Positions 19,977-23,498 of a stretch of 34,072 nucleotides of DNA are shown here, piece by piece; positions within the stretch are counted from its first letter, which is position 1, and each line of letters starts with the position of its first letter. Made by a program: the position numbers and the translations under genes. This DNA is from Anaerolineae bacterium (lineage in GTDB: Bacteria; Chloroflexota; Anaerolineae; J102): the NCBI GenBank assembly GCA_011371305.1, contig DRQW01000006.1, positions 1 through 34,072 of the forward strand, given 5' to 3'. Below the pieces are notes generated by a model that saw nothing but the letters and a program-made list of their open reading frames with translations, was not told the DNA's origin and made no database searches.

Positions 19977-20354
19977 ATGTCCAAAATCGATGAAACCCCC
20001 TTCCAGCATCCCTCGGAGAAAGAATTCGCCCGCCTTCTCGACTTCTACGGCATCCCTTGGGAGTATGAACCCCACACATTCCCCTTGGAATACAACGAAG
20101 ACGGCACCCTTCGCGCCGCGTTCTCGCCCGATTTCTACCTGCCCGAGCAAGACCTCTACGTGGAGCTCACCACCCAATCCCCCCGGCTGAACCACCTCAA
20201 AAACAAGAAAATCCGGCGCCTGAAAGAGCTCTACCCCCACATCAACATCAAGCTCCTGAACCGTCGCGATCTCCGCAGCCTGGCCATTAAATATGACTTT
20301 CCAGATCCCACCGACACAAACACCCAAAAAGGGCATCCCCGAGACCATCCCTGA
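19977..20354 (+). CDS. Small uncharacterised protein, possible PD-(D/E)XK nuclease-like fold
   Basis: MSKIDETPFQHPSEKEFARLLDFYGIPWEYEPHTF...AAFSPDFYLPEQDLYVELTT; PD-x(n)-ExT arrangement. Stop overlaps the start of hpt. Confidence 0.6.
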   Translation: MSKIDETPFQHPSEKEFARLLDFYGIPWEYEPHTFPLEYNEDGTLRAAFSPDFYLPEQDLYVELTTQSPRLNHLKNKKIRRLKELYPHINIKLLNRRDLRSLAIKYDFPDPTDTNTQKGHPRDHP

Positions 20355-20919
20355 GGCCTACCGTGAGGGCCTCTCCCGCCTGCTCATCGATGAAGCGTCG
20401 CTGCAAGCACGCATTCGCGAGATGGGCCGGGCCATCGCCCGCGATTACGCGGACAAAAACCCCATCTTCGTCGGGGTCCTCAAAGGTGTGCTCTTTTTCA
20501 TGGCGGACTTACTCCGCCATACGCCCATCCCCCTGGCTGTGGACTTCATGGCCATCTCCAGCTACAGCCCTGAATCCAGAGACCACGGCTATGTGCGTAT
20601 CACCAAAGACCTGGACCTCTGCATCGAAGGGCGGCATGTCATCTTTGTGGAGGACATCATCGACACGGGATTGACCCTGGGCTATCTGTTGCGCCTGCTT
20701 CGCGAACGCAATCCGGCCAGCCTGGAAGTCGCGGCCCTATTCGATAAACCCGGTCGTCGCCTCATCGACATCCAACCCCGCTATCTCGGTTTCCACCTGC
20801 CCGATCTCTTCGTGGTGGGGTATGGCCTTGATTTTCGAGAGCAGTATCGCAACCTCCCCTTTGTTGCCGTGCTCAATCCCGACGTCATCAAAAACCAAAA
20901 ACGCCAGCCCAAGCGCTGA
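20293..20919 (+). CDS. hpt: Hypoxanthine phosphoribosyltransferase
   Basis: VGVLKGVLFFMADLLRH...VDFMAISSYS...VIFVEDIIDTGLTLGYLL...GYGLDFREQYRNLPFVAVL. Exact start uncertain. Confidence 0.95.
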   Translation: MTFQIPPTQTPKKGIPETIPEAYREGLSRLLIDEASLQARIREMGRAIARDYADKNPIFVGVLKGVLFFMADLLRHTPIPLAVDFMAISSYSPESRDHGYVRITKDLDLCIEGRHVIFVEDIIDTGLTLGYLLRLLRERNPASLEVAALFDKPGRRLIDIQPRYLGFHLPDLFVVGYGLDFREQYRNLPFVAVLNPDVIKNQKRQPKR

Positions 20920-20921: not shown

Positions 20922-21174
20922 CCTTCACGCGATACGGCCCCAAGGAACCTCTGTCGCTCTTGCGAGGTTGGTGAGACTTCACGTCTCTTGCCCTTCGAAA
21001 GCCTTTTGGCTTTCGCTCCGGGCATTTTTCCCTCGCTTTCCCCTTTCCTCTACCTTCAGGTTTCTTCCCTGGCCTTCTTTCATGTTGACGTTCATGACGT
21101 CATCCATGAAAGTGGCCTTCGAAACCTGGGGCTTCGGAAGGGGTGAGCTCCTTCGATTCCTCGGGGCTCGTATC
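20893..21174 (-). ncRNA. Putative structured noncoding RNA, family unassigned
   Basis: Promoter, terminator and many compatible helices, including closing stem GATACG-(A)-GCCCCGAGGAA / TTCCTTGGGGC-CGTATC and the extended hairpin CAGGTTTC...GAAACCTG. Details in findings. Confidence 0.75.
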
Positions 21175-21181
21175 TACCTAT

Positions 21182-21210
21182 AGTATAATCCGATGAAGGG
21201 GCGTTGTCAA
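21182..21210 (-). promoter_or_regulatory. Sigma70-type promoter of the ncRNA
   Basis: Minus strand TTGACA-N17-TATACT; same hexamers and spacing as the tRNA-Pro promoter. Confidence 0.85.
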
Positions 21211-21453
21211 GATAGATTTGACATAACCAAAGGAAATTTTGTGATTTCTCTCACATTTTCCTCTGCTCTTGGACACTTCGAGTGTCCTTGGGCGTCTCTG
21301 TGGACCAAGAGGGAGTCATGTTGCCCGGTTTCTTGGGGGCCGTATCATCGATCGTGGTTTTCGTTTATTCTGGCACGGAGCGTCGTTCATTCGTTCGTTG
21401 AGTTTCATCTAAATAGATATTTTGTCTCATCTTCGTCGTAGGGGCTGGGGATT

Positions 21454-21827
21454 TGTGGAAAAGTCCGCCTGCCAGGGGAAATCGGTAGGTTAAATGGGGG
21501 CTGCGGCCGCTGAACCCCCGGCATTTTGGGGGGATGGTGTCGTTTCCCTTGTGGGAAAGTGTTGCGGAAAACTGGGGGACGAAAATAGGAAAAAGATTGG
21601 GGGCGCCAGGAGGCAAAATGGGGCAACTCCACCATCGGAGGCGGGTTGCCGAAAGATTAGTGATACAGAACGCGTCCCCTACTAGATATCGTAGGGATGT
21701 GGGAGTCTGCGTGGTTTGGTTGACGTAATGCCTTTTCACAAATTATCCAAGGAATTCCCCAGGGTTGGTTGGGTAATCCGCAGGGATATTCGCAGCTTTT
21801 ATCCAGATTTCCACATAGTTATCCACA
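21454..21827. other. DnaA-box cluster, candidate oriC or DnaA-regulated region
   Basis: TGTGGAAAA (21454-21462, inverted TTTTCCACA), TTATCCAAG (21743-21751), TAATCCGCA (21774-21782), TTATCCAGA (21799-21807), ATTTCCACA (21807-21815), TTATCCACA (21819-21827). Confidence 0.55.
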
Positions 21828-21844
21828 GGTTGGGCACAGTCAGA

Positions 21845-23209
21845 CTATGCGGTGGTGATATCCCGCTGCAGGAAATAGCCTAACGCAAAAAGGGCCAGAA
21901 GGAATCCCAGATAATTTTCGTTGAGAAACCGTGAGAAGTAGGCGAAGACCAATAACAGCACCGCACCATGCCAGAATTGATTGGCCAAAGTGTTCTGTTT
22001 CAGTTGATGGAAGAGGAGGATTAGAAGGGTTGGGACGGTCGCCAGGAGCTCAGGGATCCAAAAGGGCCAGTAAGCGAAGCGATCGGCCAGGGAGCCGGTA
22101 GCGAGTACGAAGTTGGCGAACCCCAGGCCCCAAATCTGGTAGTGGGTCTCGGCCGTGCCCGCAGCCCAACGCCACACGTCGTCGATGAAATCGTTGGGAG
22201 ACCAGAGGAAATAGGGCAACGTGAAGGCCAGGAAGACTCCCCCCGCGGGCAAAGCGCGGCGGAAAAGGGTGACCAATGTCTCTTTGTTCAGGATGGCGTG
22301 GAGGGGCAAGGTGGGAGAATCCAGCAAGAGGAGCAGGAAGAAGGGAGCGAGAAACCAGGCAGTGGGTTTCGACGCGGCCGCGATGCCGAAGAAGACACTA
22401 CCCCACACCCATTGCTTGCGCCAGAGAAACCAGGCGCTGAGCACCAGCCAGGCCAAAATAAACACATCGTTCTGCCCGAAGATCACATCCAGCCCCATGA
22501 TGGGGTTGAGTCCAAGGACCATGGTCAATCCCAGTGCCGCCTGCGGGGTTCCGCGCGTCAACGCGTAGGCCAGGAAAAGGATGAGCGTGAACAGAAGCAA
22601 ATAGGTGAAACGCTGGTCATACCAGCCTATCAGCCCTTGGGAGATCAGCCGTACCGGTGCGGAGAGAATGAATGTGGCTGGAAGATAGGGATAGTGATCG
22701 AGGGCTGTTCGGAACTCAGGGAAACCCCATTCCGCCATAGGGGTGTCGCGATAGTCTTCGATGTAGGGATTTTTGCCCGAAAGGAAGTAGTCGATGGCGA
22801 TCTCTGTCTGGATAACGCCGCCATCGTGGCTGTAGGAGTGAGGCAGATTATCGTGACGAAGCAGGGCCATCTTCAAGGTGGGCAGGATGACCAGGGTTAA
22901 GATGATAACCCAGAGCAGCCCATATTTCCACCGGAAGGTCGCTGAGAGACCCCATCTTGCTTGGAACAGGTCCACGAAAATGTAGAGTATGAAGGTCAGT
23001 AGGCTGACAGCAGCCAGCAGGAGGAAGATGGGATCACCATACCACGGCCCGAACGCGTCCGCAGCTCCTGGTGGCAGCCAACCCCCCACCAAAGGATGGC
23101 GGACCACGTTTTGGAAATGCTCGAACAAGCTCGCTTCGGCGAATTTATTCAACATTAACCGGGCCAGAAGCAGGATGAAGAGAAGGAGGACGTCGAAGGA
23201 TCTTTTCAT
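21845..23209 (-). CDS. Polytopic membrane glycosyltransferase (GT87/DUF2029-like)
   Basis: Many hydrophobic segments; IDYFLSGKNPYIEDY and DVIFGQNDVFILAWLVLSAWFLWRKQ motifs. Start MKRSFDVLL at 23209 is preferred; the upstream ORF extension contains a repeat fragment. Confidence 0.8.
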   Translation of the reverse strand: MKRSFDVLLLFILLLARLMLNKFAEASLFEHFQNVVRHPLVGGWLPPGAADAFGPWYGDPIFLLLAAVSLLTFILYIFVDLFQARWGLSATFRWKYGLLWVIILTLVILPTLKMALLRHDNLPHSYSHDGGVIQTEIAIDYFLSGKNPYIEDYRDTPMAEWGFPEFRTALDHYPYLPATFILSAPVRLISQGLIGWYDQRFTYLLLFTLILFLAYALTRGTPQAALGLTMVLGLNPIMGLDVIFGQNDVFILAWLVLSAWFLWRKQWVWGSVFFGIAAASKPTAWFLAPFFLLLLLDSPTLPLHAILNKETLVTLFRRALPAGGVFLAFTLPYFLWSPNDFIDDVWRWAAGTAETHYQIWGLGFANFVLATGSLADRFAYWPFWIPELLATVPTLLILLFHQLKQNTLANQFWHGAVLLLVFAYFSRFLNENYLGFLLALFALGYFLQRDITTA

Positions 23210-23267
23210 GGGGTTGCCATAAAAGGAGAGTACGAATAAACACGGAAAGATATGGGGGCAAAAAGGC

Positions 23268-23330
23268 CGTAAGCCGGGAGACCAGTAGACCCGCAGACCG
23301 GGCGGTGAGCGATGCGGTCCGGTTTCCATG
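23268..23330. repeat. Fragment of the MITE-like repeat interior
   Basis: GTAAGCCGGGAGACCAGTAGACCCGCAGACCGGGCGGTGAGCGATGCGGTCCGGTTTCCATG aligns with 25371-25434. Confidence 0.75.
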
Positions 23331-23469
23331 GTACACGAATCCCGCCGAAGAATACAAAAGACCGGGAAATTGTAGAAAAACGGCAAGAAAACCGAGCGTG
23401 TTGGAACTTTTTGAGAAAAATGGGCGTATGGGTAGGTGTGATAGTTAGGTATTTGACGGGGGATGGGGA

Positions 23470-23498
23470 TTGACAAGAGGTCGGGGAAAGCGTACTAT
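23470..23498 (+). promoter_or_regulatory. Sigma70-type promoter of holB
   Basis: TTGACA-N17-TACTAT, then 6 nt to ATG 23505. Confidence 0.8.

What the first reader, a model, noticed from the sequence alone, without database searches (positions are those of the whole stretch)
21190..21843. Noncoding region with clustered DnaA boxes: candidate oriC or DnaA-titration site
About 650 bp without a credible gene and visibly less GC-rich than its surroundings. It holds a perfect TTATCCACA (21819-21827), inverted TTTTCCACA (21454-21462), and near-matches TTATCCAAG, TAATCCGCA, TTATCCAGA and ATTTCCACA, with five same-strand boxes inside 21743-21827. AT-rich stretches (ggaaattttgtgatttctctcacattttcc; catctaaatagatattttgtc) could serve as unwinding elements. 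The nearby holB-yaaT(PSP1) pair also lies close to the origin in Bacillus. Against it: no dnaA, dnaN or gyr gene is in the window, and most genes to the left point toward the site.
Basis: partly seen in the sequence, partly recalled or inferred. Interest (0 to 1): 0.72.

Follow-up and report, generated by a model that had tools for sequence, protein, structure and literature searches.

The report
Chromosome origin with cytosine-type unwinding repeats
This stretch is very probably the place where an uncultured Anaerolineae (Chloroflexota) bacterium starts copying its chromosome; it lies apart from the initiator gene dnaA, and its strand-opening repeats carry cytosine where most bacteria have adenine.

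Summary
In detail: 2 perfect and 4 one-mismatch DnaA boxes lie in 654 bp (0.39 expected from shuffles, 0/400), and GC is 50% against 61% for the rest of the window. The interpretation (oriC) is strongly supported; "titration site" is not. On the minus strand 21427-21462 reads DnaA box, GC-rich spacer, 3-nt repeats, then an AT-rich stretch: the known basal unwinding system (BUS). A 24-nt pattern from this element occurs once in each of 9/9 congeneric genomes, at this site in 8 and on a broken contig in the ninth. Scanned over about 85,000 genomes, the same pattern lands within 400 bp of dnaA in 44 of 80 listed loci, in many phyla. In Longilinea arvoryzae (same class) the matching site lies within about 60 kb of the GC-skew switch and about 1 Mb from dnaA. 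Two features are unusual. The origin is detached from dnaA, while a conserved three-box array stays behind dnaA. The DnaA-trios use cytosine (TCG) rather than adenine (TAG) in their middle position, a substitution shown experimentally to work in B. subtilis. Activity is not shown; no read coverage was available. A conserved, previously unlisted structured RNA lies beside the origin.

The parts
21403..21426 (.). AT-rich stretch next to the trios: presumed DNA unwinding element (DUE)
   Evidence: sequence; GC 0.28 over 21401-21436; AT-rich in same position in genus alignment
21427..21441 (-). DnaA-trio repeats, + strand TCA-TCT-TCG-TCG-TAG (3'-GAT GCT GCT TCT ACT-5'); cytosine in the middle of trios 2-5
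21442..21453 (-). 12-nt GC-rich spacer between box and first trio, including most of a weak second tandem box (AAATCCCCA, 21446-21454, 3 mismatches)
   Evidence: sequence; published spacer peak 10-13 nt (PMC8287927)
21454..21462 (-). DnaA box TTTTCCACA, anchor box of the unwinding module
   Evidence: conserved in the genus
21550..21571 (-). Middle pair of DnaA boxes (TTTCCCACA 21550, TTTTCCGCA 21563), 96 and 109 bp from the anchor box; one or both members kept at 92-96 / 106-109 bp in most relatives
21677..21696 (.). Imperfect palindrome CCCTACTAGATATCGTAGGG, possibly a variant of a second conserved Anaerolineae origin motif (CCCATATATGGG)
   Evidence: assignment is inference
21743..21827 (+). 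Same-strand array of 6 strong-to-weak DnaA boxes (21743, 21774, 21786, 21799, 21807, 21819), ending in a pair 12 bp apart
   Evidence: 12-bp pair seen in 6 of 8 relatives (G012, G014, G011, G015, G013, G010)
20293..20919 (+). Left neighbour: phosphoribosyltransferase (HPRT-like), beside the site also in other genera
21845..23476 (-). Right neighbour: multi-spanning membrane protein of no named family; beside the site in the genus

Best explanation
The stretch 21403-21827 is the chromosomal replication origin (oriC). DnaA binds the box at 21454 (and probably the weak box overlapping it), oligomerises across the 12-nt GC-rich spacer onto the trinucleotide repeats 21441-21427, captures their bases one trio at a time and so opens the adjacent AT-rich stretch for helicase loading. 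The middle pair and the right-hand array of same-strand boxes recruit further DnaA and probably tune cooperativity. Shown: boxes beyond chance, module order, conservation in the genus, recurrence of the same pattern beside dnaA in other phyla, conservation of the five DnaA residues that contact trios, and a skew switch near the matching site of a class relative. Inferred: binding, unwinding and initiation. In this family the origin is detached from dnaA, and its trios mostly carry cytosine (3'-GCT) instead of adenine (3'-GAT).
For: Box enrichment. BUS pattern TMGTAGNNGNNGNGGATNTGTGGA (<=1 mismatch) occurs exactly once in each of 9/9 genus genomes and in 5 others of the family, reversed-pattern control 0 in all 20. 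In 8 of 9 genus genomes it is on one contig with the same membrane-protein gene, within about 450 bp of its 3' end; in the ninth the contig is broken there. Box spacings kept: 12-bp pair, about 95/108-bp pair. The window-derived pattern lies <400 bp from dnaA, nearly always on its 3' side, in 44/80 loci listed from a scan of about 85,000 genomes. Longilinea arvoryzae: skew negative 2.99 Mb->641 kb, positive 657 kb->2.70 Mb (one near-zero sample at 830 kb and one at 1.45 Mb go against the sign in raw skew); site 677 kb, dnaA 3.83 Mb. 4-fold-site skew is higher right than left of the site in 7/8 contigs. Trio-contacting DnaA residues N187, I190, I193, R202, E228 of B. subtilis are all kept in this organism's DnaA; cytosine can replace the middle adenine (PMC10721633).
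Against: No functional or read-coverage data. The genome is a 213-contig, 72%-complete bin, so a second candidate may be missing. The window's own skew shows only a local minimum, and the left/right 4-fold difference in the window itself is small (-0.137 to -0.111). In Longilinea the sampled switch lies left of the site (between 621 and 677 kb), and that site is linked to this one by the pattern, not by gene order. By the published BUS rule (at least three consecutive N-A-N trios) the window fails after trio 1. A separate conserved three-box array sits behind dnaA.
Confidence: 0.93

Rival explanations
1. The true origin is the array of three boxes directly 3' of dnaA (G000:C99, L001:2566-2615); the window site is a DnaA-titration or reactivation locus (datA/DARS-like).
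For: The array has three perfect TTATCCACA boxes 20-21 bp apart and is kept 3' of dnaA in most family genomes with dnaA in hand; in other families (L251, L252, L254, L257) a similar array is part of an origin 3' of dnaA.
Against: No trio-like repeat was seen beside the array in the sequence read for this organism. The window site has the complete unwinding module, one per genome. In Longilinea the skew switch is about 1 Mb from dnaA.
Confidence: 0.04
2. Two-part or dual origin: the window site and the array behind dnaA both take part in initiation although far apart.
For: Both are conserved in the family.
Against: To my knowledge bipartite origins span only about one gene; here the two lie at least about 36 kb apart in G017 (contig positions). 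No evidence of cooperation.
Confidence: 0.02
3. The region is a promoter/terminator region with chance boxes.
For: A strong promoter and RNA gene lie at its left end.
Against: Box count 0/400 in shuffles; boxes and spacings conserved while most of the sequence between them is not.
Confidence: 0.01

Closest known systems
Basal unwinding system (BUS) of Bacillus subtilis oriC: DnaA-boxes 6/7 plus DnaA-trios (PMC6669920, PMC8287927, PMC10721633)
   Same: Order box, weak second box, GC-rich spacer of 12 nt, trinucleotide repeats, AT-rich DUE; trio-contacting DnaA residues kept.
   Different: Trios 2-5 have C, not A, in the middle; site not beside dnaA/dnaN; a middle pair and a right-hand array of boxes with their own spacing.
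Origins of other Anaerolineae (Longilinea arvoryzae L181, UTCFX2 L169, family f26 loci L251/L252/L254)
   Same: Same BUS pattern or a close variant, several DnaA boxes on its right.
   Different: Mostly adenine trios (TAG/TAA); many carry the perfect palindrome CCCATATATGGG, here only a variant; in f26/f46 the origin is still 3' of dnaA.
DnaA-titration/reactivation loci (datA, DARS of E. coli)
   Same: Cluster of DnaA boxes away from dnaA.
   Different: To my knowledge those lack a DUE and DnaA-trios; this site has both and carries the only BUS-pattern match found in the genome.

Membership tests
Bacterial oriC | Cluster of DnaA boxes above chance | tested here: met
Bacterial oriC | AT-rich unwinding element beside the boxes | tested here: met
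   21401-21436, 28% GC
Bacterial oriC | Located at GC-skew minimum | tested here: inconclusive
   Met approximately in Longilinea; 7/8 flank comparisons; own genome too fragmented
Bacterial oriC | Next to dnaA/dnaN (usual, not universal) | tested here: not met
   dnaA is on another contig, C99
Bacterial oriC | Replication starts here (coverage, 2D gel, autonomous replication) | not testable with these tools
   No reads or cells
BUS | DnaA box, spacer <=16 nt, then trios | tested here: met
   Spacer 12 nt; rule from PMC8287927
BUS | At least three consecutive trios with middle adenine (N-A-N) | tested here: not met
   Only trio 1 has A in the window; C in trios 2-5. Met only if C is accepted, as shown for B. 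subtilis
BUS | DnaA with trio-contacting residues N187, I190, I193, R202, E228 | tested here: met
   All identical in own DnaA
datA/DARS-type DnaA-regulating site | Boxes without an unwinding module | tested here: not met
   Unwinding module present

The most novel reading that the evidence does not exclude
A lineage whose origin naturally runs on cytosine DnaA-trios: evolution has replaced the middle adenine by the other amino-bearing base across a genus, as the amino-group reading model for DnaA allows, after the unwinding module had moved away from dnaA and left a conserved three-box array behind.
Probability: 0.55. Interest if true: 0.62.

Novelty: new variant of a known kind. Interest (0 to 1): 0.5.

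Why it matters
My literature searches found no paper describing an Anaerolineae origin. This gives a testable origin for the group, shows that "next to dnaA" misleads here, and supplies natural sequences for the question of which bases DnaA reads when it opens DNA: Pelliciari et al. suspected deviant trios and found cytosine functional in B. subtilis; here a genus appears to use it. It also gives a simple 24-nt pattern that finds origins in draft genomes.

Tried and rejected
Window GC skew alone: not decisive. Searching the same DNA by similarity beyond the genus: only short conserved blocks match, so the pattern was used instead. The membrane-protein gene as a marker in other genera: site not beside it there in most. 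Single-contig class genomes: the strict pattern gave only poor matches in nearly all, so they were not used for skew. 6S RNA as identity of the neighbouring RNA: rejected, 6S found elsewhere in 15/20 genomes. Rfam on the region: no credible match. The CCCATATATGGG motif as origin-specific: rejected, other copies occur per genome, one of them upstream of dnaA.

Full report
What is there. The region lies between an HPRT-like gene and a membrane-protein gene on the minus strand. Against 400 dinucleotide-preserving shuffles the box counts are never reached (2 perfect, expected 0.01; 6 with <=1 mismatch, expected 0.39), and no perfect TTWTCCACA occurs elsewhere in the 34-kb window. GC is 50% against 61%.

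Whose DNA. The window is a whole contig (C6) of a 2.17-Mb, 213-contig bin, 72% complete. Relatives in the same genus and family correspond to records titled Anaerolineae bacterium (L172, L174) and Caldilineales bacterium (L182).

Conservation. The membrane-protein gene (P0003) led to the site in the genus. Next to its 3' end relatives have the same layout: an inverted anchor box about 380-440 bp away, a second inverted pair 92-96/106-109 bp from it (one or both members), and a same-strand array ending in two boxes 12 bp apart. The alignment shows the strongest block at TCGTCGTAGGGGCTGGGGATTTGTGGA. In the window this is 21433-21459.

What the block is. Read on the minus strand it is TTWTCCACA, AATCCCCAGCCCC, TACGACGA..., AT-rich: box, GC-rich spacer, trinucleotide run, DUE. 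This is the architecture of the basal unwinding system (PMC6669920; PMC8287927). The pattern TMGTAGNNGNNGNGGATNTGTGGA with <=1 mismatch hits exactly once in all nine genus genomes and once in five others of the family, with zero reversed-pattern hits in all 20 genomes. Of the 80 loci shown, 44 had it within 400 bp of dnaA, nearly always 3' of it and in opposite orientation, in Firmicutes, Thermus, Gemmatimonadetes, Poribacteria and others. By rough arithmetic about 15 chance hits are expected in the whole collection; some listed loci look like chance hits (for example L149, L189).

Genome-scale test. Longilinea arvoryzae (4.1-Mb scaffold) has one match at 677,392. Twenty samples of about 20 kb give negative skew from 2.99 Mb through zero to 641 kb and mainly positive skew from 657 kb to 2.70 Mb (raw skew is slightly negative in two samples of that arm, at 830 kb and 1.45 Mb); the opposite switch lies near 2.7-3.0 Mb, half a chromosome away. 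dnaA is at 3.83 Mb, inside the negative arm. So in this class relative the skew switch is near the pattern, not near dnaA. The switch lies 0-56 kb left of the site at this sampling. Flanks of the site in eight contigs give higher 4-fold-site skew on the right in seven; in the window itself the difference is slight.

Synteny. In other genera the element stays 3' of HPRT but the right neighbour is a NfeD-like gene (L103, L309, L311, L312). In G006 the order is HPRT, site, NfeD, membrane protein; the genus seems to have lost NfeD. holB proximity is therefore incidental.

Deviant trios. In the genus, trio 1 is TAG in 9/9, trio 2 TCG in 9/9, trio 3 TCG in 7/9 (TAG in 2), trio 4 has middle C in 8/9. 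In 45 dnaA-adjacent sites of other phyla trio 2 is TAG in 44. The search pattern fixed trio 1 and allowed A or C in trio 2, so the comparison is fair for trio 2 and for trios 3-5. Pelliciari et al. suspected deviant trios lacking the middle adenine. They later showed that cytosine, which also bears an amino group, supports strand opening in vitro and growth in B. subtilis, through Asn187 (PMC10721633). Asn187, Ile190, Ile193, Arg202 and Glu228 are all identical in this organism's DnaA. I infer that these cytosine trios work as the adenine trios do. This is not tested.

The array behind dnaA. Behind dnaA of this genome (L001:2566-2615) lie three perfect boxes spaced 21 and 20 bp. The array recurs in most family genomes with dnaA in hand. 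In families f26 and f46 a similar array is part of an origin that lies 3' of dnaA and ends in trio-like repeats (L251, L252, L254, L257). The simplest reading is that the ancestral origin was beside dnaA, the unwinding module moved, and the array stayed and is still selected. The direction of this change was not tested on a tree.

Verdict. It is a known kind of element in an unusual form (detached from dnaA, cytosine trios). Initiation itself is unproven.

Noticed in passing
window 20925-21181 (minus strand); L027:4281-4524, L069:3446-3704, L086:1703-1974, L096:2257-2521, L106:1058-1298, L107:1794-2050, L119:1096-1354: Structured RNA gene of about 250 nt between HPRT (convergent) and the origin, with a TTGACA-TATACT promoter: MFE -132.7 kcal/mol, z -11.9; relatives z -6 to -7. 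Closing stem and a hairpin covary (8 pairs changed on both sides, 0/500 shuffles). No Rfam match; not 6S RNA. Seen only in this family with the pattern used. Function unknown.
   Followed up: partly
L001:2566-2615 and 3' of dnaA in most of L038-L049; also L251, L252, L254, L257: Three DnaA boxes with 20/21-bp spacing directly 3' of dnaA, conserved although the origin is elsewhere in this family.
   Followed up: partly
L166, L169, L175, L176, L181 (origins); about 290-360 bp upstream of dnaA in L255, L256, L259, L262, L264-L269, L339: Palindrome CCCATATATGGG (often CCCCCATATATGGGGG) in Anaerolineae origins (13 strand-wise matches of CATATATGGG against 0 in background) and in dnaA upstream regions: candidate site of an unknown initiation regulator.
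   Followed up: partly
window 21454-21827 and relatives (L104, L064, L027): Conserved TGACTATC next to the left anchor box in most relatives and GACTATG just outside the right-end box in some; not explained.
   Followed up: no
L052-L061 (for example L061): About 470-520-aa protein with two DnaI/DnaC/IstB-like AAA domains in tandem, in nearly all family genomes and many of the class; possibly a helicase loader.
   Followed up: partly
window 21845-23476 (minus): Multi-spanning membrane protein conserved in the family but matching no Pfam or NCBIfam family.
   Followed up: no
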